From Candidatus Zixiibacteriota bacterium (GTDB lineage: Bacteria > Zixibacteria > MSB-5A5 > GN15 > JACZUZ01), in NCBI GenBank assembly GCA_024280775.1, contig JAJRPM010000012.1, positions 1 to 64,000 on the forward strand: a stretch of 64,000 bases of DNA, read 5' to 3'. Position 1 is the first letter of the stretch; each line of letters begins with the position of its first letter. The notes under the pieces were generated by a model. That model was not told where the DNA came from and made no database searches. It saw only the letters and a program-made list of their open reading frames with translations. A program made the translations under genes and the position numbers. Below are positions 106 to 16,833 of this stretch, in pieces.

Positions 106-177
106 CCCAAATTACGCTTGACCAACAAGACGGTATCTACTACACTACTACACTTTGCTAAGAAAGAGATTCTGAGA

Positions 178-1317
178 GTGCCTAAAGCCAATTCATATTC
201 ATTTATTTGTACATTGCTTTTTGTTCTAGCTACCATAGCTCCCTGCAAGGGGCAAGATCAAACACACTCTCCGAAAAACAATGAGGGTGAACCCAGTACT
301 ACTCCTCCGAAACAATCAGTAAATATGGAGGGCGCAAAAGAAGCGATTACCTACGGAGCAGGTGACATCGTTACAAGCGGGTTGCTGGATAGGACAGGAA
401 ACTTATGGTTCGGCACTACAACTGAGGGCGTCTATCGGTACGATGGTAAGTCTTTTGCCAACTTTACTGAGCGCGAGGGTTTGTGTAGTAATGAAGTTTG
501 GTCTATGCTAGAAGATACAGATGGCATCATTTGGTTTGGAACTGCCGATGGGCTCTGTAGCTATGACGGGAAGACTTTTACCCATGTGCCCCTTCCTTGG
601 GACGGCGAAAACGATCTTTGGGGCAAATTGTGCAATCCTAATCAGGTTACATCTATGCTGCAGGATAAGAACGGATTCTACTGGCTAGGCACATGCGGCG
701 GGGGAGCTTATCGCTATGATGGAAAAACCTTCATCAGTTTCCTATCGGCTACAGGTCAAATACAATCTGATGGTCTCCATCATAATGTCGTAAAGAGTAT
801 GCTAGAAGATACCGCCGGGAACATTTGGTTCACTTCTCTGACCCACGGGGGGGTAAGCCGCTACGATGGTGAATCTCTTACTCATTTTACAGCAAAGGAC
901 GGACTAAATGATGATATGGTTTTTGCCAGCATTCTAGACCATACAGGAAACATTTGGTTCGGATGTATCCAGAGTAAAGGCGGTGGCTTATACCGCTATG
1001 ACGGAAAAAGTTTTACTAATTTCACAAAAGAAGACGGTCTCTGTGACAATTTTGTCATGAGCTTCTTTGAAGATAGAACCAATAAACTTTGGATTGGCAC
1101 TGGAAGTGGCATTTGTATTTATGACCCATCGGGTTCACACAGTCCAGAAGGAAAAGTGTTTACGCCATTTCTTCCTGCAGATGAGGACTTAGCCTTAGGC
1201 GATATAAGATTCTTTGTAGAGGATAAAGCAAATAACGTTTGGTTCGGAGGTCGGTATGGCGTCTTGTATCGTTATGATGGGAAAACGATAACGGAATTCA
1301 CCCATAAGGGACACTGA
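178..1317 (+). CDS. Secreted seven-bladed Reg_prop beta-propeller protein
   Basis: This is an exported protein made almost entirely of two-component-regulator propeller (Reg_prop) repeats. The core motif (D-x-x-G-N-x-W-F-G, then Y-R-Y-D-G-K-S-F and F-T-x-x-D-G-L) occurs seven times, enough to close one seven-bladed propeller. No transmembrane helix, kinase or DNA-binding domain follows, unlike the hybrid two-component sensors where Reg_prop blades are usually found. The GTG at 178 is preferred over the TTG at 118 because AAAGAGA lies just upstream and a typical signal peptide follows directly, with a hydrophobic FICTLLFVLA core and cleavage near CKGQ. A close paralogue lies at 4183-5292. A periplasmic or surface ligand-binding role is inferred; the ligand is unknown. 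Confidence 0.85.
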   Translation: MPKANSYSFICTLLFVLATIAPCKGQDQTHSPKNNEGEPSTTPPKQSVNMEGAKEAITYGAGDIVTSGLLDRTGNLWFGTTTEGVYRYDGKSFANFTEREGLCSNEVWSMLEDTDGIIWFGTADGLCSYDGKTFTHVPLPWDGENDLWGKLCNPNQVTSMLQDKNGFYWLGTCGGGAYRYDGKTFISFLSATGQIQSDGLHHNVVKSMLEDTAGNIWFTSLTHGGVSRYDGESLTHFTAKDGLNDDMVFASILDHTGNIWFGCIQSKGGGLYRYDGKSFTNFTKEDGLCDNFVMSFFEDRTNKLWIGTGSGICIYDPSGSHSPEGKVFTPFLPADEDLALGDIRFFVEDKANNVWFGGRYGVLYRYDGKTITEFTHKGH

Positions 1318-2544: not shown

Positions 2545-3267
2545 ATGACGACATTGGTAGTTGGGGCTAGCGGCGCTACTGGTCGCTTGTTGGTTGAAGA
2601 GTTGGTCAATCGCGGAGAGAATATCAAAGTGATTATCAGGGCTCTTGATAGAATACCGGAGTCCATTCGCAGGCATCAGAATGTGTCGGTCATTGAGGCT
2701 AGTGTTCTTGACCTTAGTGCTGATGAATTGTCCCGGCATGTAAAAGAGTGCGGCGCTGTGGCTTCATGTTTGGGGCACAATTTGAGTTTCAAGGGTATGT
2801 ATGGTCAGCCTCGCAGACTGGTTACCGAGACTACGAAACGGTTATGCGCCGCTATCAGAAGTAACAATGCCGCGCAGGCGGTCAAGTTTGTGTTGATGAA
2901 CACAACTGGCAATAGCAACCGTGACCTGCAAGAGCAGATCTCTTTCGGACAAAAACTCGTCATTGGAGCTCTTCGATTGTTGTTGCCTCCACATGTGGAT
3001 AACGAGGAGGCGGCTGACTTTCTCAGAACGGGTATCGGACAGCGCGATAATGAAATCGAATGGGTAGCGGTTCGTCCTGATAATCTATCTGATGAAGATG
3101 TAGTTACCGGCTATGATGTCTGTCCTTCGCCTACAAGAAGCGCAATCTTTGACTCTGGGTCGACCAGCCGTATTAATGTTGGACACTTTATGGCCGACCT
3201 GATTACCGAGGATGATATTTGGAACAAGTGGCAGGGGCAGATGCCAGTGATTTACAATAACGAGTAG
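2545..3267 (+). CDS. NAD(P)-binding Rossmann protein, atypical SDR
   Basis: This 240-residue cytoplasmic protein begins at once with a Rossmann dinucleotide site, GASGATG at residues 7-13, typical of the NmrA/HSCARG-like atypical short-chain dehydrogenases (NAD(P)H-binding, PF13460). The classical catalytic YxxxK is not evident, so it may bind NAD(P) as a sensor or act on an unknown substrate. The start is supported by GAGG about eight bases upstream of the ATG. It is convergent with the DUF3365 lipoprotein gene, with only 30 bases between the stops, and has no operon partner. The fold is certain; the function is open. Confidence 0.8.
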   Translation: MTTLVVGASGATGRLLVEELVNRGENIKVIIRALDRIPESIRRHQNVSVIEASVLDLSADELSRHVKECGAVASCLGHNLSFKGMYGQPRRLVTETTKRLCAAIRSNNAAQAVKFVLMNTTGNSNRDLQEQISFGQKLVIGALRLLLPPHVDNEEAADFLRTGIGQRDNEIEWVAVRPDNLSDEDVVTGYDVCPSPTRSAIFDSGSTSRINVGHFMADLITEDDIWNKWQGQMPVIYNNE

Positions 3268-3297: not shown

Positions 3298-3930
3298 TTA
3301 CAAACTATCCCGAAGCGCTCGCTGTAGTTGACTGACGTCATCTCCGTTCTCGATTACTACCACAAACATTCCGCGGAGATCTCCGGATTTATAGCCGGTT
3401 GCTTGGTCATCGGGGTATTTGTCTTTTAGGGCCAATGTTACTTTTTCGCCTACCTTCTTGCTGTCGCCGTGACACTTCAGACAAAACTTACCGATTTTGA
3501 TTGGCTGATAATAAGTATAGCCTATCTTGTTATCAGGGTTCGCCCACTCGTCGAAGAACTTGAGTTGCTTGAGAGTATCAGCAAATAGCGCTAGGATTTC
3601 TTGTTGGTGAGTATCAGCTTTGTTGAGTTGGTTTCTTGGCTTTTCTGTTACTCGCTTGATAGACCATTGTTTTGCAGAGAATCCAGCGGCGATTTCTGGC
3701 GCTTTTATTTGACAGGCGCTGATTGCATTTACTGGTCCGCCTTTTTTCATTGCGCTCATTAACTCAGACTTTAAGTCTTTCATGAAACCAGAGACAAGCA
3801 TTTGGGCGGCATCCTGCATTTCAGCCTGGATGGCATTGGTTGGCGTTTCTTGTTTTGTGTTCTCGGGTTTCTCAGATGCGCTACATCCTAACGCAAACAG
3901 GACTAGAGCTGTAATCAGTAATCTATACAT
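3298..3930 (-). CDS. DUF3365 mono-haem c-type cytochrome lipoprotein
   Basis: This exported lipoprotein has a signal ending in FALGC (C16) and a single haem-c motif, CLKCH, at residues 150-154, followed by G-D-x-K and the pattern G-Y-K-x-G-D-L-R-G of the DUF3365/Tll0287-like haem family. Family members are small periplasmic haem proteins thought to sense redox state or gases, or to carry electrons. The ATG at 3930 is chosen over one 15 codons upstream because GAGAGGA precedes it and the lipoprotein signal then begins directly. It is divergent from the second propeller gene and lies about 1.4 kb from the end of the multihaem operon. A link to that operon is speculation. Confidence 0.85.
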   Translation of the reverse strand: MYRLLITALVLFALGCSASEKPENTKQETPTNAIQAEMQDAAQMLVSGFMKDLKSELMSAMKKGGPVNAISACQIKAPEIAAGFSAKQWSIKRVTEKPRNQLNKADTHQQEILALFADTLKQLKFFDEWANPDNKIGYTYYQPIKIGKFCLKCHGDSKKVGEKVTLALKDKYPDDQATGYKSGDLRGMFVVVIENGDDVSQLQRALRDSL

Positions 3931-4182
3931 CAGGAGGTTCCTCTCAAAAAGTGAATTCTCGTTTAAGCTTAACATCTGTATACAGACGCTCCTATCGCGT
4001 ACAGTAACAATAATCGTTGAAGAATGAAAGGAAATGTATTCTGGATTGATATCTGAGCGGGCAGGATTATTTGAACGAATCAGCAGGAACCTTGTATCAT
4101 TTAGTGGCTACGAAACAGTTACATAGTGCAATTGGCCAAGATTTATTAAGTGGAAAATGAACTCGTATTTAAGGGGCGTTTA

Positions 4183-5292
4183 GTGCGTAATCAACTCTAC
4201 TCCATGTTAGTGGCGCTGGTATTAGTTTCTCCAGGATACGGACAAGACAAAACTAACATTCGAAACGACAGCGGAGCTGAAACGGGAACGGCCCCTAAAG
4301 AGACAGAATCACAAGAACGCCAAACCGTTATCGAGTCCATGAAGCCGTCAGAGATTCCGCCTGGTCACAATCCCGCATTGCAGATAAGCAGGTTCGTGCG
4401 CAGGATATTTGAAGATAAGAAAGGAAATCTTTGGTTCGGCACCAATGGAGATGGCGTGTGTCGTTACGATGGAGATTCTCTCACTTTCTTTTCTACCAAG
4501 GAAGGATTAAGTGGAAATGCTGTGCGAGGCATCGTTGAAGACAAAGACGGTTACTTGTGGTTTGCCACTAATGGCGGTGTATCTAGGTATGACGGAAAGT
4601 CTTTCAGGACTTTTACAATGAAAGACGGATTGAGCGATAATGATGTTTGGAGCATTTATGTTGATAGAGCAGGGAGCATTTGGGTCGGCACATTTGGTGG
4701 CGCTTGTCTTTTCGATGCATCATCTGGCGAGTTCAAATCTTTTCCGCTTCCCCCGGCTCCGAAGTTGAATCCATTTAGAGGTGTGACAAGCTTAAAGATA
4801 GTTCACGCGATAACTGAAGATCGGGCGGGCAATATGTGGTTTGGCTCTGAGGGTGGGGCGTATCGCTATGATGGAAAAACATTAACCAATTTTTCAGAGA
4901 AAGACGGACTTCCTGATAATTCGGTGAATTCCCTTTGGGAAGATAACCAAGGGAATATGTGGTTCGCGACACATTTCGGAGGTGTAAGCCGCTATGATGG
5001 AAAGTCGTTTACCAACTTTACCGAAGATGGAGTTGTTAGCGGTGATGAGGTCTGGAGTATCTATGAAGATAGAAGTGGGAACATCTGGTTCCCCTCTGAA
5101 GGATTTGGTGTGTATCGCTACGACGGAAAATCCTTTGCCAATTTTCACAATCAAGAAGGCCTATACAGCCATGCGATACAGTGCGTCTTTGAAGATAAAG
5201 AAGGACGGCTTTGGTGCGGTGGTTGGTTGGGACTTTTTCGCTATGATGGAAAATCGTTCGTCCAGGTTACCAGAGAAGGACCCTGGGAATAG
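4183..5292 (+). CDS. Secreted seven-bladed Reg_prop beta-propeller protein, paralogue
   Basis: This second exported Reg_prop propeller closely resembles the protein at 178-1317. It again has seven copies of the blade motif (D-x-x-G-N-x-W-F-G/A ... Y-D-G-K-S-F) and no output domain. The GTG at 4183, preceded by AAGGGGC, is preferred to the GTG at 4150 because a short signal peptide follows at once (SMLVALVLVSPGYG, cleavage before Q). It is divergent from the DUF3365 gene across about 250 bases. Blades with Y-R-Y-D-G-K and F-T-x-K-D-G-L are nearly identical in wording between the two proteins, which suggests duplication or gene conversion. Ligand binding in the periplasm or at the surface is inferred. 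Confidence 0.85.
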   Translation: MRNQLYSMLVALVLVSPGYGQDKTNIRNDSGAETGTAPKETESQERQTVIESMKPSEIPPGHNPALQISRFVRRIFEDKKGNLWFGTNGDGVCRYDGDSLTFFSTKEGLSGNAVRGIVEDKDGYLWFATNGGVSRYDGKSFRTFTMKDGLSDNDVWSIYVDRAGSIWVGTFGGACLFDASSGEFKSFPLPPAPKLNPFRGVTSLKIVHAITEDRAGNMWFGSEGGAYRYDGKTLTNFSEKDGLPDNSVNSLWEDNQGNMWFATHFGGVSRYDGKSFTNFTEDGVVSGDEVWSIYEDRSGNIWFPSEGFGVYRYDGKSFANFHNQEGLYSHAIQCVFEDKEGRLWCGGWLGLFRYDGKSFVQVTREGPWE

Positions 5293-5349
5293 TGCGTTTT
5301 GAGTCTTAGTACGGTCGTATGATCTTTTAGACCACTGCGGGAAAACGAT

Positions 5350-6972
5350 TTATAGTCTTAGGCCGATTTCGGTGTATAGTTCGGCGGACTGTAGGTTGCT
5401 ATCGAAGTATTGGCGGTAGCTTCCGGTGAAAAAGTAGCGCTTGCCTAGCGGGCGTGAGGCTCCGATGTCCAAGTAGAAGTTTGTTACGGTTGTCGATGCT
5501 GTGTTGTAGGTATAGGCCGATGCTGTGACATTGAGTCTGGTTTGACGTCCGACCGGGAAACGATAGGTGATGTTGGGTCGATAGCCGGTAGTGAATTGTG
5601 TTTTTACATATGATATGTTGAGCGCTAAGGAATGTCCGCGCTTTGGCAAGCGGTTGATGCGCGCGCCGATTGAGCCGAAGGTATTGTTGCCGAATGCGCT
5701 TTGTCTCATACGCACTCCGAGGTTTCCATAGAGGCGGAGGTTCTTTATGGCGTTTAGCCTGAAGCCGCCACGGAATCCGCGATGTGTTGAACCATCGAAG
5801 AGACTATCAGGTGTTTCAGCGTTGTCGTAACGCCGGATGTTTTTTCTGGCGTCATAGGTGAAGTAAACACTGGCGCCAGTCAGTACATTGATGTTTGCTG
5901 TTCCATAGTAATTATTGATGTCGAACCTTTTGCCGGTGACTGCATATCTCCAGCTTCTGTTGAGGTCCACCTCAAATGACTGACTTAGAGATAGCCAACG
6001 ACCTCTTGAGTAGGAGCTTTGCAAATACAGGAAATCCCGGCTGACAGTGAAAGATTCTATTACCGAAGTTAGCGAAGCTGTCACTGACACTTGTTGCTTG
6101 GCATCACCTGCTACATATCGCGCATAGGCCCCGAGTTTTCGCCGGTTAAGTTGAATTGCAGAAGTTTGGGAGTTCGGGGTGGACCCTGCTGCGACACCGA
6201 CATGTAATTGCTCATTGATTCGGCGTATTACATAACCTCCGTCGATGTATCCCATCCCGCGCACATGCGGCGCGAGCATACGTCCTACACCCCATGCGAC
6301 AGAGGAGTTGTCATCACCGTAGCTTACTCCAAATGTGTAGAGATGATGTGACCAATCGTCGGTTGAATTCCCAAAGTTGGACGTGCGTAAGGAGCGCGAG
6401 CGATGATATAGCCTTGAGCGATGTCGCATTTCGAATTGTATGCCACTGCCGCTGATGTTTTTGACTCTTATGCGACTTCGCAGTCCTGCTTGATTTGATG
6501 ATAGTTTGGCGCCGGTTTGGTCTTTACGGTATAAGTTTTCCAGTGAAACTTCACCAGATAACACATTTTTTGCATCGCGCGCCCTTCGTGATATTCTGTT
6601 GCTGCCCTTCGGGGTGTTCGATCCAGCCTTACCTTTGTATGACATCAGCGTTTCGGGTGACTTGGTAAATTTTGCTAGTTGTAATCGATCACCTACTCTT
6701 AACTTCTTTCGCGAATCAACTAGTTTACAAGCTGCTGATGAGCCAGAGACGTTAGTGACCGCAATAAGCGCCAAAGTGTCTGACTTCTTGGTTACCGCTA
6801 GAGTGTCACCAATTGCGATACCGGACTTTGTTCCGGCATTGATGTAAATTGCCTCTGAGGCGATATAGGTTATCTTTGCCTTAAGAGTAGCTGAGGCTAT
6901 CGCAGTAGCGCCCAAGACTGCGGCTAACGATAGCGCAATCGTTATTGACCAATTTATACAGTTTTTTTGCAT
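5350..6972 (-). CDS. Outer-membrane beta-barrel protein of the multihaem redox operon
   Basis: This 540-residue exported protein has a signal peptide (SLAAVLGATAIASA), a small beta domain at residues 32-102 with a G-I-A-I-G-D ... L-R-V-G-D-R-L pattern like the C-terminal domain of FlgT-type proteins, and then about 430 residues of alternating aromatic/polar strands ending in E-I-G-L-R-L, as in outer-membrane barrels. The ATG at 6972 is chosen because GGAGGA lies six bases upstream and the signal follows. It is the last gene of the five-gene operon, 16 bases after the 19-haem cytochrome. By analogy with porin-cytochrome conduits it could house or dock the cytochromes in the outer membrane. No sequence similarity to MtrB/PioB is claimed. 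Confidence 0.75.
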   Translation of the reverse strand: MQKNCINWSITIALSLAAVLGATAIASATLKAKITYIASEAIYINAGTKSGIAIGDTLAVTKKSDTLALIAVTNVSGSSAACKLVDSRKKLRVGDRLQLAKFTKSPETLMSYKGKAGSNTPKGSNRISRRARDAKNVLSGEVSLENLYRKDQTGAKLSSNQAGLRSRIRVKNISGSGIQFEMRHRSRLYHRSRSLRTSNFGNSTDDWSHHLYTFGVSYGDDNSSVAWGVGRMLAPHVRGMGYIDGGYVIRRINEQLHVGVAAGSTPNSQTSAIQLNRRKLGAYARYVAGDAKQQVSVTASLTSVIESFTVSRDFLYLQSSYSRGRWLSLSQSFEVDLNRSWRYAVTGKRFDINNYYGTANINVLTGASVYFTYDARKNIRRYDNAETPDSLFDGSTHRGFRGGFRLNAIKNLRLYGNLGVRMRQSAFGNNTFGSIGARINRLPKRGHSLALNISYVKTQFTTGYRPNITYRFPVGRQTRLNVTASAYTYNTASTTVTNFYLDIGASRPLGKRYFFTGSYRQYFDSNLQSAELYTEIGLRL

Positions 6973-6988
6973 GTGCTTCCTCCGTCCG

Positions 6989-8482
6989 TTACTCTCTGCC
7001 ATCGGGGTGGCAGTTAATACAAGAGGGGCCGTCTGGTGAATAGCCGTTTCTTCCCTTGTGTTTTTTGTTCATCTTAGAAAGACTGTGTTTGTGACAGCCT
7101 TCCAAACAGGTGAAGAATGATCTTTGCTGGGGTTTGGTGTGACAGTCGGCGCAGGCGTCCCATTTGCCTCTATGCTTTCCAGAGAAAATTGGGAAGAAAG
7201 TGGCGTCATGGTCGGTGAATTTTCCTTTTTTCCCATCTGGATGACAGCCATAACAGTTAGAACTGTTAAAGCTGTAACCTGGCATTCCCTGGTGGGTATT
7301 GTCAGTTCCGGGATTAGGATGACAGGTTAGACAATCGAAAACTTTTCTATCGTTTGGATTATCGTGGCACTCAATGCAATCGTTCCATTGATTCGCATGA
7401 GTTCCAGAGAAGATGGGGAAGAACTCTGCGTCATGATTGGCAAAATTCCCTTTCTTGCCGTCCGGATGACAGCTTAGGCAAGATGGACTATCGAAACTAT
7501 ATCCGCTTATCCCTTGATGGATATTATCTGATTTTGGATTTGGGTGACAGGTTAGACAGTCGAATACTTTTCTATCATTGGGGTCGCTATGGCACTCGAC
7601 ACAATCGCTCCAGGTGTTTGCATGCGACCCGGTAAAAATGGGGAAGAACTGGGCGTCATGGTCGCCGAATGAACCAGATTCACCTGTTGGATGGCAAAGG
7701 TAGCAGTCCTGACTATTATATACATAACCTGAAATCCCGCGATGGTCATTGTCTGTATCAGTTTGCGGATGCCCGTGACAATTAAAGCAACTGAAGTCGG
7801 CATTGTTGTCGGGGTTTACATGGCACGTTGCGCATTGATCCCATTGACCTCGGTGCGCTCCTGAATAGATCGGGAAAAACGGTTCATGCTCCACAAGTCC
7901 GGCTGGACGCCAGGTGTTCATCTGGTGACAGTCCTGACATTCGGTGGAGAATCCTCCAGAGACATGATTTGGAGATGACACATTCAAGAAATCCTGCTGG
8001 TGACACTCGACGCAACGAGTTGTGTTGAACGACAGATCTTCCTTGGGTAGTCCGGGGTGGCAGTTTTGGCAATCAATGAGAGCGTGCCTGCCCATTGCGG
8101 GGAAATTTGACTCCATGTGGATAGTTTGGACATCCATAATATTCCAGCCGCGAGTCGAAGAATGGCATTTTTCACAGTCGGAGCCCATTCTTGATTCGTG
8201 AATGTCTTCATGGCAAACTGCGCAATCAGCTTTGGCGCGGCTGAAATCCTCGACGGAGTGACATCCGAGGCAATCGGCCTGGGAGTGATTATCATCGAGC
8301 TGGTAGCCAGTTAGGTTGTGGTCAAAGCGAATGTCGGTGAACGACGCAGCGCTGTGACATTTCTCACAGTCAAACTTCAGTTTCTTGTGAGGGTTTTTCG
8401 GTGTGGCTGCGTGCGCGACCATGAAAGCCACCAAAGATACCACCACTAACGGCAGGCCTATTGACAATAGATTCTTCTTCAT
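6989..8482 (-). CDS. 19-haem c-type cytochrome with tandem tri-haem modules
   Basis: This is a periplasmic or outer-membrane-associated cytochrome of 497 residues with a Sec signal (SIGLPLVVVSLVAFMVAHA). There are 18 CXXCH motifs plus one CX3CH (CLEGCH) near the C terminus, giving 19 predicted haems, one per 26 residues. The C-terminal 60% is four tandem modules of about 74 residues, each beginning with the pattern D-x-x-F-F-P-I-F-x-G-x-H and carrying three haem motifs. Modules two and three are nearly identical and lie exactly 225 bases apart (7341 and 7566). An AGGA motif precedes the ATG. It sits 28 bases after the 20-haem gene. Electron storage or long-range transfer is the expected role. 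Confidence 0.92.
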   Translation of the reverse strand: MKKNLLSIGLPLVVVSLVAFMVAHAATPKNPHKKLKFDCEKCHSAASFTDIRFDHNLTGYQLDDNHSQADCLGCHSVEDFSRAKADCAVCHEDIHESRMGSDCEKCHSSTRGWNIMDVQTIHMESNFPAMGRHALIDCQNCHPGLPKEDLSFNTTRCVECHQQDFLNVSSPNHVSGGFSTECQDCHQMNTWRPAGLVEHEPFFPIYSGAHRGQWDQCATCHVNPDNNADFSCFNCHGHPQTDTDNDHRGISGYVYNSQDCYLCHPTGESGSFGDHDAQFFPIFTGSHANTWSDCVECHSDPNDRKVFDCLTCHPNPKSDNIHQGISGYSFDSPSCLSCHPDGKKGNFANHDAEFFPIFSGTHANQWNDCIECHDNPNDRKVFDCLTCHPNPGTDNTHQGMPGYSFNSSNCYGCHPDGKKGKFTDHDATFFPIFSGKHRGKWDACADCHTKPQQRSFFTCLEGCHKHSLSKMNKKHKGRNGYSPDGPSCINCHPDGRE

Positions 8483-8510
8483 ATTTTGTATCCTATCCGA
8501 CCATGTTCAA

Positions 8511-10280
8511 TTATGGCTTCCCTAGTAACTCCAATGTTTTTAGCGAATGGCAACTCTTGCAGGCGCTATCTAATGGACGATAGCGAACGAAGGCCTTTTT
8601 GCCTTTCTTTTCGGTCTTATGGCAGTTTTGGCACTGCGTGCGGGCATGTGCGCCTTCTAATCTGTATGATGCGTCGCGATTATGATCGAACGCGAGTTTG
8701 TCCCATGCATCTGTGATATGGCAATTGTCACAAGTTTTTTCGGGCTTGGATTTGGTAAACTGTCCGTGATGAATATCTTTGTGACAGGACTCGCAATTGG
8801 TCTTCTCGAATGTGAAACGCATTTCCTTTTTGCCCTTGGAGTTCTTTTTTGTTACATGGCAAATAGGGCATGGTTGTGCCAGGTGCGCTCCGGTCAATAT
8901 GAATGCGCTTTCTGCATTGTGTCTCTTGGTGGTGAACATAGATGGCTTGAAACCCGATTCACTGTGACAGCTTTCGCACAGGCCGCCGTCTTTTCTGTCG
9001 CTGAATTGGCCGTTGTGGGTGTCGGCGTGACAGTCTGCGCAGAATTCTGATTTCAGTTTCCTGGCGTCTTTGACACCGTTCTTATGACAGGCCTGACATT
9101 TCACTTTCAGGTGTTTGCCGAGCAATGGGTATTCGGTTCGTGAATGATCGAAACTACCTTTCTTCACTGATTTCCAGTCATTGGTCTGGTGACAGCTTTT
9201 GCAGTCTGGTCCTAGCTTGGCGTTGTGGACATCTTTGTGACATGACTGGCAGGTTGCAAAGTCCAGCCCTTTGTATGCGGCGAATACGTCGGAAGATTTA
9301 TCATTTTTCCCGCTCTTTGCTACATTGGCCGTACTGTTCTTGTGGCAGCTTTCGCATTTGGCTTTCCTGTGTTTACCGGTTAGTGGAAAGCGCGTAGAGG
9401 CATGATCAAAACCAGAGGCTGGCGACCAGGCTTTTTGGGTGTGACACTTTTGGCAGTCCTCGCCGAGTTTTCCTACGTGCGGATCTGTATGGCAGGGTGC
9501 GCAGTTTTTGAAATCCAGTCCGGTGAATTTTGCAAAGGCGCTATCTGGTTTTCCCTGCGGGGAAATGATAATCTTGCTTTGCTGAGTCGGGTGACATTTT
9601 TTGCATTGAGTGTCTGCGTGTTTTCCAGCTAGCACAAACTTTGTCTTGTTGTGATCGAATCCTCGCGCTGGTATCCAATGGTCTGTTGCGTGGCACTTGG
9701 TACAATCTGCTCCTAATTGATTCCGGTGTTCGTCACGATGACATCCTAAGCAGTCCTCAGTCAGACCAAGAAATGTTGAACTGAAGTTTACCTGTTGATG
9801 CTTTTTTAGAAAGTCGGTTTGCAGAAAATCCGGTTTATGGCAATCTCTGCACACTAGAGTCTCGTGCTTGCCCGAAAGCTCTAAACCTGTCAATTTGTGA
9901 TTGAACTTGTTCATTTCATTTTCCCAGTGAATCAACTGAAAATCTTTACCAGAATGGTCACTATGACATGAAAAGCAGGCTTTCTTTTCTTTGGTCACTA
10001 CTAGGTAATGATACCCTTTTTCGGACTTGATGGCAGCGCTTACGCCTGTATGACACTGCAAACACTTCTTGGCGCTGGGTCCTTTTCCAAATTCATGACA
10101 CTCGGTACAGTTTGTAAGACCTTCCAATCCTTCATGTGGCGCGGCTAAGTCTCCGGGTGATAGTTGCGCTTGTGCAGATGTGGGAGTGATAACCTGAAAT
10201 AAACCAATACATATCGCCAGGGATAGTATCAATGTCCCAATCACTGACCTTGGCGCTGATTTTTCACCCTTCTCTAACAT
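8511..10280 (-). CDS. 20-haem c-type cytochrome, cytochrome c3-like repeats
   Basis: This exported multihaem cytochrome of about 589 residues has a signal peptide (VIGTLILSLAICIGLF ... TSAQA) followed by 20 CXXCH motifs. The motifs recur in a pattern (G-x-D-C-x-x-C-H, W, F-D-H, L-x-G-K-H, C-x-x-C-H-K) typical of doubled-CXXCH/cytochrome-c7-like domains. The ATG at 10280 is preferred over an upstream TTG at 10334, which would overlap the preceding gene by 23 bases and add an unusual leader. Its Shine-Dalgarno sequence is weak. It is gene three of the operon, between the membrane protein and the 19-haem cytochrome, and is well placed to take electrons from the inner membrane across the periplasm. 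Confidence 0.92.
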   Translation of the reverse strand: MLEKGEKSAPRSVIGTLILSLAICIGLFQVITPTSAQAQLSPGDLAAPHEGLEGLTNCTECHEFGKGPSAKKCLQCHTGVSAAIKSEKGYHYLVVTKEKKACFSCHSDHSGKDFQLIHWENEMNKFNHKLTGLELSGKHETLVCRDCHKPDFLQTDFLKKHQQVNFSSTFLGLTEDCLGCHRDEHRNQLGADCTKCHATDHWIPARGFDHNKTKFVLAGKHADTQCKKCHPTQQSKIIISPQGKPDSAFAKFTGLDFKNCAPCHTDPHVGKLGEDCQKCHTQKAWSPASGFDHASTRFPLTGKHRKAKCESCHKNSTANVAKSGKNDKSSDVFAAYKGLDFATCQSCHKDVHNAKLGPDCKSCHQTNDWKSVKKGSFDHSRTEYPLLGKHLKVKCQACHKNGVKDARKLKSEFCADCHADTHNGQFSDRKDGGLCESCHSESGFKPSMFTTKRHNAESAFILTGAHLAQPCPICHVTKKNSKGKKEMRFTFEKTNCESCHKDIHHGQFTKSKPEKTCDNCHITDAWDKLAFDHNRDASYRLEGAHARTQCQNCHKTEKKGKKAFVRYRPLDSACKSCHSLKTLELLGKP

Positions 10281-10311
10281 CTGTCTTATGTAGTTTCCCG
10301 ATGAGCCATGA

Positions 10312-11199
10312 TTAGAATATCCAGCGATAACCAAATAGGACTGCTACGAAAACATGAATAATCATCACTGCTACCATTATGTAGGCAAATGGTTTGTGTA
10401 TTACATGCCAGTAGTGAAACAGTTTTACAAAAGTATCAAGGTATGCCCTTCGTCTTTCCAGGAGCGCTTTTCTTTGCGCAAGCTTCATAGCCTCGGCGAT
10501 GGCCTTCGGCGGTATATCGGGGGTATCCGATAGTATTTGCTTCTTGAGGTTGTAAAAGCGAAAAGGTCGCTTAATATCGTTTAGCGCTATGGCAAACATT
10601 GCTTTCACACCGGTGTTTTTGCCGGCTGAACCTGTCTCTGAGAATGAGCTTATCATCGCCAGCGCTTTGTCTGTTAGTCCGTAGGTTTCTTTCAGTATTA
10701 GCTCTAGTGTTTCACCGGCTGACTGTATATCGCCCAACTCCATTTCCGCTCCCTGCGAGCCTCGCGGGATTTGGATGTATATGTAACGGCCAAAGATTCC
10801 ACTGAACATCACAGCGAGCATCGAGAAGTAGCCTATTGAGACAATTCCATTGAACTTGAATGCTGTGTGTAACGTCACTAATAGCGGTCCGATGATTCCA
10901 AATAGAATGTGCACACTTAGCCATCTGCTGGTTTTACCCCAGCGAATGCCAAATTTTTGTCGTTTGCGCAATGAATATAGAAACAGTAGCAGTATCATGG
11001 CGCTTCCGACTATTCCATACCCATGCCCGATTAGTCCACCGGGTTTGAGCATAGTGTGCATCTCAAGATGCGGACGCTCTGCCAGAGGAGCGCTGTAGTA
11101 GACCCAGCCGGAGACGAACGCAACGAGAATTAGCGTTAGTGACACTGCATAGAGTATCATGAGCGTCGGCCCAAAATAGTTGCGCTTACCGTTCGCCAT
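10312..11199 (-). CDS. Cytochrome-b-like integral membrane subunit
   Basis: This 295-residue inner-membrane protein has four helices near residues 13-33, 58-76, 95-112 and 119-141, a soluble stretch of about 120 residues, and a last helix near 272-291. Histidines in or beside the helices (H59, H97, H111 and one in the last helix, M-I-I-H-V-F) could ligate haem b, as in b561/ferric-reductase-like proteins. The ATG at 11199 is chosen over a TTG six codons upstream; a GAGGTGG lies about 11 bases before it. It overlaps the end of the Fe-S flavoprotein gene by 14 bases. The likely job is to pass electrons from that enzyme to the periplasmic cytochromes. Haem content is inferred. Confidence 0.75.
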   Translation of the reverse strand: MANGKRNYFGPTLMILYAVSLTLILVAFVSGWVYYSAPLAERPHLEMHTMLKPGGLIGHGYGIVGSAMILLLFLYSLRKRQKFGIRWGKTSRWLSVHILFGIIGPLLVTLHTAFKFNGIVSIGYFSMLAVMFSGIFGRYIYIQIPRGSQGAEMELGDIQSAGETLELILKETYGLTDKALAMISSFSETGSAGKNTGVKAMFAIALNDIKRPFRFYNLKKQILSDTPDIPPKAIAEAMKLAQRKALLERRRAYLDTFVKLFHYWHVIHKPFAYIMVAVMIIHVFVAVLFGYRWIF

Positions 11200-12502
11200 A
11201 TTTGGTCGCCACCTCAACGCCTATTTGATTTAGAAAGCCTGTCGGCAAGATTCCTCCGATAAAGGCGAAGATGAATTGGTTTTCTATCGCAATTATCTCT
11301 TTGGAATCATCGAGTTTCTCCAGTATAACGATTTCTTCCTGTATCTCTTTCCCGCCACATTCTGGAATAAACCTTAGCCAGCCTGCATCTATTGCGCGCT
11401 GAACTTTTTCGCGGTTTTCTGCATTAGCCGCCTCCAACGCTTTTCCTCTGCAGGCGAGAGTGACTTCTGTACCCTCTTGCTCACCCAGAGCCAACGCTCC
11501 CTCGGCGGCGCTGTTGCCTCCCCCGACTACGAGCAGTTTCATGCCCTTGTATTGTTCAGGCTCTATTAGTTTGTAGGCAACCTTTGATGAACGCTCTCCA
11601 CTGACTCCGAGTTTTCTTGGTGTGCCACGTCGTCCGATTGCCAACAGCACATTCTTCGCTTGATGCGTCGATTTACTGGTTATTATTTCAAAATGTCCGT
11701 TACTGCGTTTGATGTCCTCGACTTTTTCATCGATATGAACTTTGATTTCTGCTTCGGTTATTACCTTTTCCCATAGTTCGAGCAAATCCTCTTTGATAAT
11801 TTCCTTGAACTTCACTTTTCCATACAGTGGGATTTCCATGGGTTGTGTCATGACCAATTTCTGCCGCGGATAGCTCAACGCCGCGCCACCTACGCCTTCT
11901 TGCTCTATGGTTATGTAGTTCAAACCCAGCTTTTTCGCCTGCAATGTTGCGGCGATTCCTGCGGGACCTGCGCCGACAATTAGTACGTCATGTATTCCAT
12001 TCTCTGAGCGTCTTTCGGCTTTGACAATATACTCCATTGCCTGACAACCTTGTGTCACGGCGTTACGTATTAGTCCCATGCCGCCGAGCTCACCGGCTAT
12101 GTATATTCCCGGGACATTGGTTTCGAATGTTTCTTTGACCATAGGAATATCCACACCTCTCCGCGAGGTGCCGAACACTAACCCTATGGCGCCAACCGGG
12201 CAGGCATCGAGGCAGGCTCCATGACCGATACATTTTGTAGGGGAGACCAATTCCGCTTTTCCATCGACAATTCCGATTATATCTCCCTCAGGGCAGGCAT
12301 CCAAACACGCGCCGGCGCAGATACATCTTTGGGAGTCTATTTCTGGATGAAGTGATACTGGTTCTGTCAATCCATCAGTGACAGCTTTTGCAAGTTTGTT
12401 TTGCGCCACCTGCGCGTTGGTGAAATGCTTTTTCCAATATGACCACACCACCAATGCGCAGAGTGGCAGGGCCAGGGAGTAAATCATTTGTTCGATTGAC
12501 AT
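11186..12502 (-). CDS. Membrane-anchored Fe-S/FAD NAD(P)-binding oxidoreductase
   Basis: This 438-residue protein has an N-terminal helix at residues 3-21, two ferredoxin-like motifs near 60-71 and 91-102, and a thioredoxin-reductase-like flavoprotein with a FAD site G-A-G-P-A-G (177-182) and a second dinucleotide site G-G-G-N-S-A-A. Both cluster motifs are non-standard: the first is C60-x-C62-x3-C66-x3-C70-P, and in the second His94 replaces the usual second cysteine. A segment resembling the C-terminal V-P-G-I-Y-x-A-G-E motif of flavin reductases lies at 131-150, ahead of the FAD site. It is the first gene of the redox operon. It probably oxidises NAD(P)H and feeds the membrane subunit; flow in the reverse direction is equally possible. 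Confidence 0.85.
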   Translation of the reverse strand: MSIEQMIYSLALPLCALVVWSYWKKHFTNAQVAQNKLAKAVTDGLTEPVSLHPEIDSQRCICAGACLDACPEGDIIGIVDGKAELVSPTKCIGHGACLDACPVGAIGLVFGTSRRGVDIPMVKETFETNVPGIYIAGELGGMGLIRNAVTQGCQAMEYIVKAERRSENGIHDVLIVGAGPAGIAATLQAKKLGLNYITIEQEGVGGAALSYPRQKLVMTQPMEIPLYGKVKFKEIIKEDLLELWEKVITEAEIKVHIDEKVEDIKRSNGHFEIITSKSTHQAKNVLLAIGRRGTPRKLGVSGERSSKVAYKLIEPEQYKGMKLLVVGGGNSAAEGALALGEQEGTEVTLACRGKALEAANAENREKVQRAIDAGWLRFIPECGGKEIQEEIVILEKLDDSKEIIAIENQFIFAFIGGILPTGFLNQIGVEVATKYGER

Positions 12503-12959: not shown

Positions 12960-14723
12960 TTAGAAGGATCTTCGGAGCGCGATGCTACCACTGGTTTCGT
13001 TGAATTCATTCGAGGCGGGGTTGTCGCTGGTGAAGCGAGTGTGATTTATCCCAAGGGTGAGGTTACCGACTTTTTTTATGGGGTATGAGCTTCTGAGACT
13101 TAGACGTAGTGAAGTATTTTCGCTATCATTAGAAATATTAACTGATGCGCTGGAGACCAGGAGGTTTTTTAAGGCTCTATGTCGCGCCGAGCCGCCATAG
13201 GTTCTAGTAGTTCTCCAAGCCCCCCCACCGCGACGGCTCAATACTGTGTTTATGTTTGGGGAAACAGTTACGTTATTACCTATTGCAATCGCGGAGCGGA
13301 GAGTGGTGGTATGTGATTCGAATTCTGACTGTTTGCGTAACGTGTTGTTTTCCTGAGATGCTTGGTAAGTGTAGTCAATGCCTATGTTTCTAAAGGGCCC
13401 GGAACGGAATGAGATGGTGTGGGCGTTTCGCACTATCCAATTGTTGTTATCTAATAGCGCTAGTGAGTCGGTGGCGTCATTGTCGAGGCTAACTAGCGCT
13501 ACACTGGTTGTGATGTTCCAGCGGGAGGTGGGTCTGTTGGTGAGAGCCAGAGTAAAACGATTGCGTTTGGTGGTAAATCTTTTTTGGTCTATTAGGTTGT
13601 CTTCCTGCAACGAACCATTTAGGCGCACTTGCGTTGAGCGACCGCGAAATATCGCGCCAAATCTAACTTGACGGTAGTCCACTGGTAGTGACGCGGCCGC
13701 TAGTGACACGTATCCGGGGCCCAGATAACTGTACCCGCCGCTTAGGGTGATTTTCTTCGTGGGCCTGATTTTGACATCGGTTGTGTAGCTGTAGTCGAAT
13801 GATGTGCTTACCGTTGGTGTCAGTAGATTGTCAACTGCATCAGGGACTTCATCAGCGTTTAGTGTTGAGGATCGCCTGTCTCGCGTGTTGGCGCTTCCTG
13901 CGAGTTCCGATTTCCAGCTGAGCTTGCCGGAGAAAGCAGAAAGGTTAAACACTGTTGCCAGGACGAGATTCTCTTGTGGGGTTACCGCTAGTGGATTCAA
14001 AGTTGTGTCGGTTGTAGTGTCACTAACTATCGCAGAGTCTCCATTGGCAGGTAAAGGCGCGTCATTTATTGAACCAAGTTGATCGCGGGCGTTGAGGGCG
14101 ATGAAGGTGAAGTTAGTTCCCCTTTGGGAGCCGAAACCAAGAGAGACTCCGTAGACTCGTCTTTCATAAGAGCGATTATTATCTGTGGTCGCTACCGCTC
14201 GATTGGTTATGCCACCAATTGCTTTTAGGGTCACTACTTTGGGTGAGAGCGCTATGGAGGCGCCTCGTATTTTGATGCCGTTTAGAGTTAGTGGTGTGTA
14301 GTTTTCGGTGAAGTCACCTGCATGCGCTTCGCCCCAGGACCATTTGGGATTTACGCCTCCTTGATTCAACTGCTGTCTTCCGGTCTCATTTTCAGTGGAG
14401 ATTAGGAAGTTGAATCTAAGGTCCATAGCATTGTATAGTGACACAGTTGGAGAGAAAGACAGTCGTGCGGTTGAGGCGGGTCTGCGCCTTTCGCGGCCGT
14501 CGATGCTGTATAGTTCTCCGAAGAAGTTTAGCGAGCCATGGACTGTGATTGGCTTCGGACCAGAGTTTGAGTTGGCCGGGGTTGTGTTGGTCGTGTCATT
14601 CGTCGGTGTTTGGGCAATTGCGGTCGACACCGAAGATAACAAAGCTAGCGCCACAAGCGCTTGCAGACCGAGGGTGCAAAATGTAAGTGAACGCTTGTTA
14701 TTTTGTGAGGACTTCAATTTCAC
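12960..14723 (-). CDS. Outer-membrane beta-barrel protein, last gene of the giant-protein operon
   Basis: This exported protein of about 587 residues has a signal peptide (LGLQALVALALLSSVSTAIA, cleavage before Q), a short Thr/Asn/Pro linker, and then a long run of amphipathic strands ending S-G-S-I-A-L-R-R-S-F, with a terminal Phe as in outer-membrane barrels. Strand patterns such as R-x-T-L-A-L-T-N-R-P-T-S-R-W-N-I-T-T fit a 20-plus-strand barrel. The GTG at 14723 (GAGGG 11 bases upstream) is chosen; an ATG at 14747 gives an over-long leader without a Shine-Dalgarno. Its start overlaps the FN3 gene, suggesting coupling. It may be an export or anchoring partner for the FN3 or giant protein; no family name can be given. 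Confidence 0.7.
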   Translation of the reverse strand: MKLKSSQNNKRSLTFCTLGLQALVALALLSSVSTAIAQTPTNDTTNTTPANSNSGPKPITVHGSLNFFGELYSIDGRERRRPASTARLSFSPTVSLYNAMDLRFNFLISTENETGRQQLNQGGVNPKWSWGEAHAGDFTENYTPLTLNGIKIRGASIALSPKVVTLKAIGGITNRAVATTDNNRSYERRVYGVSLGFGSQRGTNFTFIALNARDQLGSINDAPLPANGDSAIVSDTTTDTTLNPLAVTPQENLVLATVFNLSAFSGKLSWKSELAGSANTRDRRSSTLNADEVPDAVDNLLTPTVSTSFDYSYTTDVKIRPTKKITLSGGYSYLGPGYVSLAAASLPVDYRQVRFGAIFRGRSTQVRLNGSLQEDNLIDQKRFTTKRNRFTLALTNRPTSRWNITTSVALVSLDNDATDSLALLDNNNWIVRNAHTISFRSGPFRNIGIDYTYQASQENNTLRKQSEFESHTTTLRSAIAIGNNVTVSPNINTVLSRRGGGAWRTTRTYGGSARHRALKNLLVSSASVNISNDSENTSLRLSLRSSYPIKKVGNLTLGINHTRFTSDNPASNEFNETSGSIALRRSF

Positions 14724-16788
14724 GTGAGCGAATTCCCTCGGAACCATTGGCGCCGACTGCTGAGAGTGAGTAGTAATATCTTATTCCAGAGCGAACATCT
14801 TTATCCGGGAACGCTGATTTATCTTTGGCAATGATAGAGCCGGAGATTAGCTTTGCGGCGCCGACGGCAGATCTGCGATATAGTCTATAGCCATCGACAT
14901 TGTCTTGATTGGTGATGTTCCATACTACGCGAATGCTGTCACCGTAATTGAGACAGCGAATACCTCCGGGTGGGAGTAGGGCTCCGATTGCTCTGCTGAT
15001 TGTCACTGGATGTGACGGCTGTCCCTCACGGTTATCTGATGTTACCGAACGGAGCCAGTAGGTGAATGAAGTTGCGGCGCTGGTTGCTGTTGTGTCGGTG
15101 AAGTGTCCAGTCATCGCCATGACAGGCAGGGCGTTGAGTCTAACAGCGTTAGTGTTATCACTCGCAGGCGCTCGATATATATTGTAACCGAAGACAGAGT
15201 TATCTGACGATGGAGTCCAGAACAGGCGATTGCCGTCTATATCAGCATGCCCAAAGAATGATTGTGGCGCTTGCGGGGCTTCATCGGGCTTGGCAAGCGG
15301 TGAACCTGAGACTGCTTCTGTGTAGGGGCTGTATTGATCGCTATAGGTTACCGAACGCATGGCATACATGTAAGTTCCACGCGGTGAGAGGCCGTAGGTT
15401 GTATCTGTCCAGGTGGAATCGTCTCTGATGATTAGCGCTGAGACTTGGGTGAAGTCGCTTCCCCAACTTCTGGCGCGGTAGATATAGTAGCCGCGCACCA
15501 AAGTATCCGGGATTATTTGCCATGAAAGTTTTACTGCGCTTGAGTCTGGCTCAGTTTTTAGTCCGTTTGGCGGGAGCGGACGCACCGGGGTGTGGAACAT
15601 TGCTATTGCCTGCGCGGAGCGGTCGGATTCATTGCCGGCTTTATCTAACGCAGTGACTCTATAGTAGTAGTCACGGTGGAGCGTGGCGGAATAGTCAATG
15701 TAGTAGGCGCTGTCGTTGGGTGTTGGGGCTGTGTTTACCTGGGTGAATTGTGAGTCTGCGTCTATGCTACGGAAGATATTGTAGCCGATGACATCATTGT
15801 CAGGAGATTTTTCCCAGGTGATGCGGATTCCTTCACGTTCACCGATTGCGAGTACATTTTCCGGCTTTGCAGGGGGGCTATTGTCATGCGCGCGGGCTAG
15901 AATTACCTGACGCTCGCTTTCATTGCCTGCATAGTCTGCTGAAACGACTGCGTAGTAGTAGGTGCGCTGGTTGAAGACTGTTGAATCGATGAATTTCATT
16001 TCCGGCGCCTGAGTGTCATCATCTCCAAATCTTAATGCCAGAATCTCCTCGCGGTTTAGACGTTGGTAGAAACTTGCGCTATCGGCGCTACGGTAAACAT
16101 TGAAGCTGAATGCTCCGGAGTCGTCGGGATTGGCTGTCCACTTCAGCGTTACTTGTTTGTCGCCGGTTTCTACTTCAACCAGGTTTGGGCCAAGGAGTGG
16201 AAACATCGGAACTCCAACGGTAACCTCAACTGTATCTGATGGCGCTGATTCTTTTCCGGCGCTATCAACTTGGGCGCAATAGTACACATAGGTTGAATCA
16301 AGTGACACAAGCGTATCTACCAATAGATGTCCCATCAGTTTTCTGAAGGGTTTGAGTAAGAACTCTAATGATTGGATACGTTCGTCACTGGTGACTATCA
16401 TATTCCATAAGTCGGTGGTGTCAGTGGCGCCGATGAAGGTCACCATGCCATCGACACCTTCTTTGCCTATGGCTCTTAGTTCGGAGAATGATCCTATCCT
16501 ACTTAGAGGAGATTCTGTCACCAGCTCCTGGAGAGAGTCACCTTTCTTGTGGCGGTATATATTGTATCCAGTCCAGCCATTGGTTTGCGATGCGCTCGAC
16601 TTGTGCAGCGCCGGGCCTTCAATGACTAACATGACTCCTTTGGGAGCTGATTGTGCATAGACTCTAAAGTCATCGCTTGATTGCGCCAGGCTCTTGTTGG
16701 ATGTGACGCCGATGATTAGTGACAGTACAAGCAAGGTTGCGCCGATTGTTCGTGATATTTTTTTGATATTTGTATTGTACTTATTCAT
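14698..16788 (-). CDS. Secreted fibronectin type III repeat protein
   Basis: This 696-residue exported protein has a signal peptide (TIGATLLVLSLIIGVTS) and a series of FN3-like domains of about 95 residues. Five clear copies start near P-x-x-P/V-x-x-L with the core W-x-x-x-x-D-x-x-x-x-G-Y-x-I-Y-R, plus one degenerate copy at the N terminus (G-W-T-G-Y-N-I-Y-R). There is no enzyme domain, lipobox or recognisable type IX sorting tail. The ATG at 16788 is preferred to a GTG five codons earlier; neither has a strong ribosome site. It lies 45 bases after the giant gene and overlaps the barrel gene. A surface or periplasmic scaffold role is inferred. Confidence 0.85.
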   Translation of the reverse strand: MNKYNTNIKKISRTIGATLLVLSLIIGVTSNKSLAQSSDDFRVYAQSAPKGVMLVIEGPALHKSSASQTNGWTGYNIYRHKKGDSLQELVTESPLSRIGSFSELRAIGKEGVDGMVTFIGATDTTDLWNMIVTSDERIQSLEFLLKPFRKLMGHLLVDTLVSLDSTYVYYCAQVDSAGKESAPSDTVEVTVGVPMFPLLGPNLVEVETGDKQVTLKWTANPDDSGAFSFNVYRSADSASFYQRLNREEILALRFGDDDTQAPEMKFIDSTVFNQRTYYYAVVSADYAGNESERQVILARAHDNSPPAKPENVLAIGEREGIRITWEKSPDNDVIGYNIFRSIDADSQFTQVNTAPTPNDSAYYIDYSATLHRDYYYRVTALDKAGNESDRSAQAIAMFHTPVRPLPPNGLKTEPDSSAVKLSWQIIPDTLVRGYYIYRARSWGSDFTQVSALIIRDDSTWTDTTYGLSPRGTYMYAMRSVTYSDQYSPYTEAVSGSPLAKPDEAPQAPQSFFGHADIDGNRLFWTPSSDNSVFGYNIYRAPASDNTNAVRLNALPVMAMTGHFTDTTATSAATSFTYWLRSVTSDNREGQPSHPVTISRAIGALLPPGGIRCLNYGDSIRVVWNITNQDNVDGYRLYRRSAVGAAKLISGSIIAKDKSAFPDKDVRSGIRYYYSLSAVGANGSEGIRSREIEVLTK

Positions 16789-16833
16789 GATTCTTATATT
16801 CACTTAATAGTGTGTTACACAGTATGTGTTCTG

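What the first reader, a model, noticed from the sequence alone, without database searches (positions are those of the whole stretch)
5350..12502. Five-gene operon that could move electrons from NAD(P)H to outside the cell through 39 haems
Seen directly: a Fe-S/flavin oxidoreductase with a membrane anchor, a membrane protein with possible haem-b histidines, cytochromes with 20 and 19 haem motifs, and an outer-membrane barrel, in one order on one strand with gaps of 16-31 bases or overlaps. Known: porin-cytochrome conduits need these same functional layers. The combination of a soluble-side Fe-S flavoprotein donor with two very long cytochromes and a FlgT-like-domain barrel is not a standard Mtr, Omc or Ext set that I can name. 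A mineral-reduction or interspecies electron-transfer role is inference.
Basis: partly seen in the sequence, partly recalled or inferred. Interest (0 to 1): 0.78.

Follow-up and report, generated by a model that had tools for sequence, protein, structure and literature searches.

The report
NAD(P)H-fed multihaem porin-cytochrome conduit
Five neighbouring genes in an uncultured bacterium, kept together in distantly related bacterial groups, look like a complete electrical wire from the cell's NAD(P)H through both membranes to the outside; the wire resembles a known but untested type (PCC3), while its built-in NAD(P)H-oxidising input protein appears not to have been described.

Summary
Window 5350-12502 (minus strand) holds a tight five-gene run: a membrane-anchored Fe-S flavoprotein, a five-helix b-haem protein (IMP), cytochromes with 20 and 19 haem motifs, and a 22-strand outer-membrane barrel. 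The genome is a Ca. Zixiibacteriota MAG.

The unit is real. All five genes were present in 34 of 34 related loci with enough flanking sequence, from Zixibacteria, KSB1, Calditrichota, Bacteroidota/Ignavibacteria and Acidobacteriota.

Closest known system: PCC3 (He 2017). Its IMP has the same motifs and its two giant cytochromes have comparable haem counts, but PCC3 is described as four genes. New here:
(1) a fifth, obligatory NAD(P)H flavoprotein. It is a YpdA/TrxR-like enzyme, circularly permuted, fused to a ferredoxin domain with an invariant Cys3-His motif;
(2) the outer cytochrome is a 7-haem cap plus n three-haem modules (n = 3 to 22, 16-73 haems), while the inner one stays at 17, 20 or 23;
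(3) distant IMP homologues in Proteobacteria also sit beside NAD(P)H flavoproteins, arguing for NAD(P)H rather than quinol input.

Most likely role: NAD(P)H-driven electron export to extracellular acceptors. Electron direction, acceptor and cytochrome placement are inferred.

Verdict: new variant of a known kind.

The parts
11186..12502 (-). Membrane-anchored Fe-S flavoprotein, 438 aa (proposed NAD(P)H:haem-b oxidoreductase)
   Evidence: Fer4 + Pyr_redox Pfam hits; AlphaFold2 pLDDT 90.3 with a long N-terminal helix at 3-43; YpdA/TrxR homology
12290..12325 (-). First Fe-S motif, residues 60-71 (C-x5-C-x3-C-P here; 28 of 60 relatives have the full CxxCxxCxxxCP)
12197..12232 (-). Second Fe-S motif, residues 91-102, C-x2-H-x2-C-x3-C-P; His94 invariant in 60/60
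12023..12148 (-). FAD-domain C-terminal segment of TrxR/YpdA, placed BEFORE the Rossmann fold (circular permutation), residues 119-160
11957..11974 (-). FAD-binding GAGPAG motif, residues 177-182 (start of the TrxR-like core)
10312..11199 (-). Inner-membrane protein (IMP), 295 aa, five TM helices, two HX13H haem-b motifs and SGxxG
   Evidence: the motifs match PCC3/PCC4 IMPs
10867..10911 (-). TM3 haem-b ligand pair His98/His112 (alignment A1 numbering)
   Evidence: invariant in 13/13
10354..10398 (-). TM5 haem-b ligand pair His269/His283 (alignment A1 numbering)
   Evidence: invariant in 13/13
8511..10280 (-). 20-haem cytochrome c with signal peptide (ORF can extend to TTG 10334); proposed periplasm-spanning wire
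   Evidence: 20 CxxCH; 20 haems in 51 of 66 relatives, 17 or 23 in 12 more
6989..8482 (-). 19-haem cytochrome c with signal peptide; 7-haem cap + 4 three-haem modules
7007..7834 (-). Four ~75-aa three-haem modules of the 19-haem cytochrome (spacing about 34/15/26 residues)
5350..6972 (-). Outer-membrane 22-strand beta-barrel with a small N-terminal beta domain (ORF can extend to 7002)
   Evidence: AlphaFold2 pLDDT 84.8; Foldseek hits are outer-membrane barrels

Best explanation
A self-contained trans-envelope electron conduit of the PCC3 kind with its own electron input. (1) The flavoprotein, anchored by an N-terminal helix with its body in the cytoplasm, takes hydride from NAD(P)H onto FAD and passes single electrons through two Fe-S clusters. 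(2) The five-helix IMP accepts them at its cytoplasmic loops and moves them across the inner membrane through two b haems (His98/His269 and His112/His283), as NADPH oxidases and ferric reductases do, without needing quinol. (3) The 20-haem cytochrome carries them across the periplasm as a fixed-length wire. (4) The 22-strand barrel with the modular 16-73-haem cytochrome takes them through and beyond the outer membrane to an extracellular acceptor. Shown: domain content, haem motifs, invariant ligands, gene linkage, permutation, modularity. Inferred: NAD(P)H as donor, direction, placement of the two cytochromes, acceptor.
For: Linkage: 34/34 loci with more than 9 kb downstream of the IMP carry flavoprotein, at least 2 multihaem cytochromes and barrel, mostly in four gene orders. 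In 133 Zixibacteria genomes the full-length flavoprotein is in 29 and the IMP in 26 plus one fragment, and the mismatches examined are contig ends. Distances of the components correlate, r 0.62-0.74. Input: TrxR/YpdA core with GxGxxA-type NAD(P) site, invariant Arg352 and no conserved CxxC, so not a disulfide reductase. Distant IMP homologues sit beside FNR-type FAD/NAD/Fer2 flavoproteins plus a 7-haem cytochrome (L115, L117, L118), or beside a TrxR-cNMP-Fer4 fusion plus a 10-haem cytochrome (L119). IMP: four invariant His, cytoplasmic loop with 7 K/R and 0 D/E. Cytochromes: first fixed at 17/20/23 haems, second 7+3n. Barrel: 22 strands.
Against: No biochemical, expression or localisation data. 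Electron direction cannot be read from sequence. Neither cytochrome has a lipobox, so surface exposure of the 19-haem protein is unproven. The PCC3 authors proposed quinone exchange for the homologous IMP. The window protein has lost Lys/Arg residues that follow the invariant Arg in most relatives, so NADH versus NADPH is open. Barrel lumen occupancy by a cytochrome was not modelled.
Confidence: 0.55

Rival explanations
1. Quinone-linked respiration: the IMP is a quinol dehydrogenase that feeds the cytochrome wire from menaquinol, and the flavoprotein reduces the quinone pool through the IMP or is a side input.
For: He et al. 2017 proposed quinone-active cytb for the PCC3/PCC4 IMP. Known conduits (Mtr, Omc) are quinol-fed (literature).
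Against: The flavoprotein is present in 34/34 testable loci and is the immediate neighbour of the IMP in two of the common gene orders. Distant IMPs also sit with NAD(P)H flavoproteins. No quinone-site signature was tested here.
Confidence: 0.2
2. Electron uptake: electrons flow inward from extracellular Fe(II), Fe(0) or a partner to NAD(P)+.
For: PCC3 is mostly discussed for Fe(II) oxidation. In the order, all 13 carriers also have COX1, against 23 of 47 non-carriers, as an aerobic lithotroph would. Prolixibacter bellariivorans, of a genus discussed in iron-corrosion papers, carries the unit (L097).
Against: Inward transfer to NAD(P)+ through a NOX-like protein with no ion coupling would run against the membrane potential and uphill from Fe(II) (inference from established energetics). 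Carriers include Emticicia oligotrophica (L113), which I know as an aerobic heterotroph, not as a lithotroph.
Confidence: 0.15
3. A periplasmic electron store or internal redox system: the barrel is an ordinary porin or secretion channel and neither cytochrome reaches outside.
For: No lipobox or surface signal. The barrel's best PDB fold matches are ushers and porins, not MtrB. Distant IMP systems without a porin exist.
Against: A barrel of the same family is always present and its distances track the other components. A 73-haem, 1827-aa cytochrome (L073) is much longer than periplasm spanning would need (inference).
Confidence: 0.1

Closest known systems
PCC3 putative porin-cytochrome complex (He et al. 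2017, PMC5566968; Gallionellaceae, PMC10734462, PMC12442390)
   Same: IMP of about 300 aa with five TM helices, two HX13H motifs and SGxxG; periplasmic wire with 21/24/27 haems (here 17/20/23) and a variable outer cytochrome (10-35 or more; here 12-73); porin.
   Different: PCC3 is described as four genes. Here a fifth, NAD(P)H-type Fe-S flavoprotein is always present. Hosts here are Zixibacteria, KSB1, Calditrichota, Bacteroidota and Acidobacteriota rather than mainly Proteobacteria. PCC3 cytochrome and porin sequences could not be compared directly.
YpdA bacillithiol disulfide reductase / TrxR-type ferredoxin-NADP reductase
   Same: FAD and NAD(P) core (YpdA E=1e-48 by profile).
   Different: Circularly permuted, N-terminal membrane helix, ferredoxin domain fused at the permutation point, no conserved CxxC.
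NADPH oxidase / ferric reductase transmembrane domain (FRD)
   Same: Two b haems on paired HX13H motifs next to an NAD(P)H flavoprotein module, moving electrons outward across the membrane.
   Different: Only five helices; the flavoprotein is a separate TrxR-like subunit with Fe-S clusters; electrons pass on to c-type cytochromes.
Mtr/Mto, Omc-Omb-Oma, Ext, Oet conduits
   Same: Porin plus periplasmic and outer multihaem cytochromes.
   Different: No homology found here to MtrB; cytochromes have about twice the haems; input is not CymA/CbcL-like. The same genome holds a separate DmsE-decahaem/barrel/12-haem-lipoprotein set that looks Mtr-like.

Membership tests
PCC3 | Conserved IMP of about 300 aa, five TM helices, two WX3HX13H (TM3, TM5), SGxxG (TM4) | tested here: met
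   295 aa; His98/112/269/283 and Ser134-Gly135-Gly138 invariant in 13/13; the first Trp is not conserved in all members
PCC3 | Extracellular and periplasmic cytochromes with very many haems (median 34 and 21) | tested here: met
   20 fixed and 12-73 variable; location itself not tested
PCC3 | Porin encoded in the same cluster | tested here: met
   22-strand barrel model, present in 34/34 loci
PCC3 | Four-gene composition without a flavoprotein | tested here: not met
   Fifth gene present in 34/34 loci; published composition
PCC3 | Sequence homology of cytochromes and porin to Sideroxydans/Leptothrix PCC3 proteins | not tested
MtrCAB / MtoAB | Decahaem DmsE-family periplasmic cytochrome and MtrB-family porin | tested here: not met
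   Window cytochromes score 37-38 bits against a cut-off of 192 for TIGR03508; no MtrB among the top 50 fold matches
TrxR / YpdA disulfide reductase | Canonical order of FAD and NAD(P) segments | tested here: not met
   C-terminal FAD segment precedes the Rossmann fold; the permuted sequence raises the YpdA scores 81.9 to 88.1 and 77.6 to 87.5 bits and gives one continuous alignment
TrxR / YpdA disulfide reductase | Active-site CxxC (TrxR) | tested here: not met
   The only invariant Cys in 60 members are the Fe-S ligands
NADPH oxidase / FRD | Two HX13H haem-b pairs in TM helices | tested here: met
NADPH oxidase / FRD | Pfam ferric-reductase-like domain and fused FNR-type dehydrogenase | tested here: not met
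   No such Pfam hit; the dehydrogenase is a separate TrxR-type protein
FlgT-domain protein | FlgT C-terminal domain above gathering score | tested here: not met
   18.7 bits over 26 residues, cut-off 27

The most novel reading that the evidence does not exclude
A bacterial, quinone-independent, NADPH-oxidase-like electron exporter: cytosolic NAD(P)H is wired by a dedicated circularly permuted Fe-S flavoprotein through two b haems into a fixed-length periplasmic wire and a modular extracellular antenna of 16-73 haems, conserved as one indivisible unit across many phyla and linked within Zixibacteria to oxygen-respiring lineages.
Probability: 0.4. Interest if true: 0.8.

Novelty: new variant of a known kind. 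Interest (0 to 1): 0.64.

Why it matters
Characterised extracellular electron conduits are fed from the quinone pool, and how PCC3-type conduits get their electrons is open. This unit supplies a specific, testable answer: direct NAD(P)H input through a defined flavoprotein. It is present in cultured bacteria (Prolixibacter bellariivorans, Emticicia oligotrophica), so genetics and biochemistry are possible. It also shows how nature lengthens cytochrome wires, by adding three-haem modules to a constant cap while the periplasmic wire stays at a fixed length. And it extends likely extracellular electron transfer to many uncultured groups, whose genes are annotated only as 'hypothetical protein', 'NAD(P)-binding' and 'cytochrome c3'.

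Tried and rejected
Rejected: chance CxxCH clustering (no other ORF in the window has two). Random synteny: the genes upstream (12960-16803) had no match in the sister species' locus, so the unit ends at five genes. FlgT domain as a functional clue: sub-threshold. OetABI identity: OetI is the porin there, a different set. Membership in Mtr by NCBIfam: far below cut-off.

The Foldseek match to YpdA has high rmsd, as Foldseek aligns in sequence order and the two domains can be oriented differently, so the permutation rests on the profile alignments, not the fold search. The PF14522 scan of the own genome did not list the window operon itself, so that scan under-reports.
Full report
CHECK OF THE OBSERVATION. 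The two cytochromes carry 20 CxxCH and 18 CxxCH + 1 CxxxCH, 39 motifs in all; no other ORF of 60 aa or more in the window has even two. Pfam finds Cytochrome_C7/CIII domains in both cytochromes, Fer4 plus Pyr_redox in the first gene product, nothing above threshold in the membrane protein, and only a sub-threshold FlgT_C match in the barrel. The window is contig C15 of a 3.17-Mb, 97% complete genome. The nearest named relative is a Ca. Zixiibacteriota MAG, Dive100_bin1.50; Dive96/Dive100 are Southwest Indian Ridge hydrothermal samples (PMC9769843).

IS IT ONE UNIT? In 60 relatives, full-length flavoprotein homologues occur in 13 genomes counting the window's own. In the 12 others the neighbours are IMP, two multihaem cytochromes and barrel where the contig reaches that far, in two gene orders: flavoprotein first or last. 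All components split the same way between these two types, so the set is inherited together. A scan of 84,980 species genomes with the IMP alignment gave 318 relatives; the best 80 were read. Of the 34 loci with more than 9 kb downstream of the IMP, all 34 have flavoprotein, at least two cytochromes and barrel; the common orders are IFMMB (9), IMMBF (9), FIMMB (7) and IMMMBF (6). Complete sets come from records titled Zixiibacteriota, KSB1, Calditrichota, Ca. Electryonea, Bacteroidota (including Prolixibacter bellariivorans, L097), Ignavibacteriales and Acidobacteria. A further complete set lies on a plasmid of Emticicia oligotrophica (23 and 40 haems). In 133 Zixibacteria genomes the full-length flavoprotein is in 29 and the IMP in 26 plus a fragment. 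The cases of mismatch or split contigs that were opened (G060, G062, G117, G118, G121) are contig breaks through the same unit. Pairwise distances of flavoprotein, IMP, first cytochrome and barrel correlate at r = 0.62-0.74 against permutation maxima of 0.14-0.22; shared species history contributes to this. Limit: the 80 loci are the closest of 318, so the 34/34 speaks for this branch of the IMP family only.

THE FLAVOPROTEIN. It has an N-terminal hydrophobic helix (modelled 3-43), a two-cluster ferredoxin domain (60-102), then a TrxR/YpdA-like core; AlphaFold2 mean pLDDT is 90.3. Profile search against solved structures gives YpdA at E = 1e-48, but in two pieces in swapped order: query 171-434 on YpdA 3-274, and query 123-140 on YpdA 277-297. 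Moving residues 110-167 to the C-terminus turns this into one continuous alignment and raises the single-sequence score from 81.9 to 88.1 and from 77.6 to 87.5 bits; with other TrxRs the alignment then runs nearly to the end. The protein is therefore a circular permutation of the TrxR fold, with the ferredoxin domain joined at the new N-terminal side. In 60 relatives the second Fe-S motif is always C-x2-H-x2-C-x3-C-P, and the second Cys of the first motif is present in only 28, so at least one cluster is expected to be His-ligated or 3Fe-4S (inference). The only invariant Cys are Fe-S ligands, so it is not a thioredoxin-type disulfide reductase. TrxR-type ferredoxin-NADP reductases have FAD potentials near -0.24 to -0.285 V (PMC11121358, PMC9137726), suited to NAD(P)H. 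In two other Zixibacteria (G122, G132) the same permuted core is fused to a membrane polyferredoxin-like domain, so it appears to be a reusable donor cassette.

THE INNER-MEMBRANE PROTEIN. Five hydrophobic segments; a K/R-rich 78-96 loop (7 K/R, 0 D/E) sets the N-terminus and the 120-residue TM4-TM5 loop in the cytoplasm (positive-inside rule). His98, His112, His269, His283 and SGxxG are invariant in 13 sequences. These are the HX13H/HX13H and SGxxG signatures that He et al. published for the PCC3/PCC4 IMP, which they compared with NADPH oxidase and ferric reductase. Distant homologues on proteobacterial plasmids (about 60-84 bits) lie immediately after an FAD/NAD/2Fe-2S reductase and before a 7-haem cytochrome (Salinimonas, Qipengyuania, Methylophaga; in Acetobacter the upstream protein is annotated as 2Fe-2S), or after a TrxR-cNMP-Fer4 fusion and before a 10-haem cytochrome (Sphingobium). 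In G012 a distant IMP sits with a TrxR-FHA-2Fe-2S fusion and 10-haem proteins. Different NAD(P)H flavoproteins paired with the same kind of membrane protein is the best available argument that the input is NAD(P)H rather than quinol.

THE CYTOCHROMES. The first has 20 haems in 51 of 66 complete relatives, 17 in 7 and 23 in 5: steps of three. The second ranges from 12 to 73. Haem spacing shows why: a 7-haem cap (about 32, 16, 16, 35, 19, 25 residues) followed by n repeats of about 34, 15, 26; 29 of 39 sequences fit exactly, with n from 3 to 22; the window has n = 4. The fixed length of the first suits a periplasm-spanning wire and the free length of the second suits reach beyond the cell (inference). 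The same split is reported for Gallionellaceae PCC3, with 21/24/27 periplasmic haems and 10-35 extracellular. Both window proteins have signal peptides and no lipobox.

THE BARREL. The AlphaFold2 model (pLDDT 84.8) has a small N-terminal beta domain and 22 barrel strands. Fold matches are outer-membrane barrels in general, ushers and porins, and not MtrB. By standard barrel geometry 22 strands give a backbone radius near 20 A against about 24 A for the 26 strands of MtrB (own estimate), so a cytochrome could fit; this was not modelled.

MECHANISM AND DIRECTION. NAD(P)H to FAD to two Fe-S clusters to two b haems to the 20-haem wire to barrel plus modular cytochrome to an outside acceptor. Outward flow is favoured by the membrane potential and by redox order; inward flow to NAD(P)+ would be uphill on both counts with no ion coupling (inference). 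The own genome also has alternative-complex-III-like genes and COX1. All 13 carriers among 60 relatives have COX1 against 23 of 47 non-carriers (P = 4e-4; 0.02 among genomes of 90% completeness or more; not corrected for relatedness). This argues against a strictly anaerobic mineral-respiration role and fits redox balancing, or electron disposal at oxic-anoxic boundaries.

WHAT IS KNOWN. PCC3 (2017) is the closest published system; putative new porin-cytochrome clusters in Bacteroidetes have been mentioned without detail (PMC6344600), and large cytochromes in Ignavibacteria (PMC7399161). In the open-access papers that were searched, none describes the flavoprotein component, the permutation or the 7+3n rule. 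Subscription journals were not searchable, so an existing description cannot be excluded.

VERDICT. New variant of a known kind: PCC3-like conduit with an obligatory NAD(P)H input subunit. About 0.8 that it is a trans-envelope electron conduit that includes the flavoprotein; about 0.55 for the full outward NAD(P)H model.

Noticed in passing
L121 (own genome C7:415000-430000), 5168-9978: A separate Mtr-like set: DmsE-type 10-haem cytochrome, 540-aa protein taken as the barrel (no family hit), and a 12-haem protein with a lipobox-like signal.
   Followed up: partly
L122 (own genome C7:455000-465305) and C7:451069-452394: Alternative-complex-III-like genes and a cytochrome c oxidase subunit I: the organism is probably able to respire oxygen.
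   Followed up: partly
L114-L118 (plasmids of Roseomonas, Methylophaga, Acetobacter, Salinimonas, Qipengyuania): Small IMP homologue between a 2Fe-2S flavoprotein reductase and a cytochrome c of up to 7 haems, mostly on plasmids rich in copper and heavy-metal resistance genes: an NAD(P)H-to-periplasm redox module, perhaps for metal detoxification.
   Followed up: partly
L119 5193-16511 (Sphingobium plasmid) and L135 5385-17538 (G012): Distant IMP systems with TrxR fused to cyclic-nucleotide-binding and Fer4 domains, or to FHA and 2Fe-2S domains, plus 10-haem cytochromes; possibly related to PCC4.
   Followed up: no
L128 7908-9947 (G122) and L129 1776-3830 (G132): The same circularly permuted TrxR core fused to a membrane polyferredoxin-like domain.
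   Followed up: no
flavoprotein, window 11186-12502: The conserved 'YRK..F.R' stretch after the NAD(P) motif (possible 2'-phosphate contacts) is 'CRGKALEAA' in the window species and altered likewise in its sister (L032), hinting at a change of nicotinamide specificity in this genus.
   Followed up: no
window 3298-3975 and 2545-3267: Tll0287-like (possible haem sensor) protein next to an NAD(P)H-binding protein.
   Followed up: no
window 118-1317 and 4150-5292: PorZ-like and beta-propeller repeat proteins near the operon; 4150-5292 converges on its 3' end.
   Followed up: no
L113 5890-8976 (Emticicia plasmid): A CcsA-ResB-type cytochrome c maturation fusion directly precedes the conduit genes, as if the haem-attachment machinery travels with them.
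   Followed up: no
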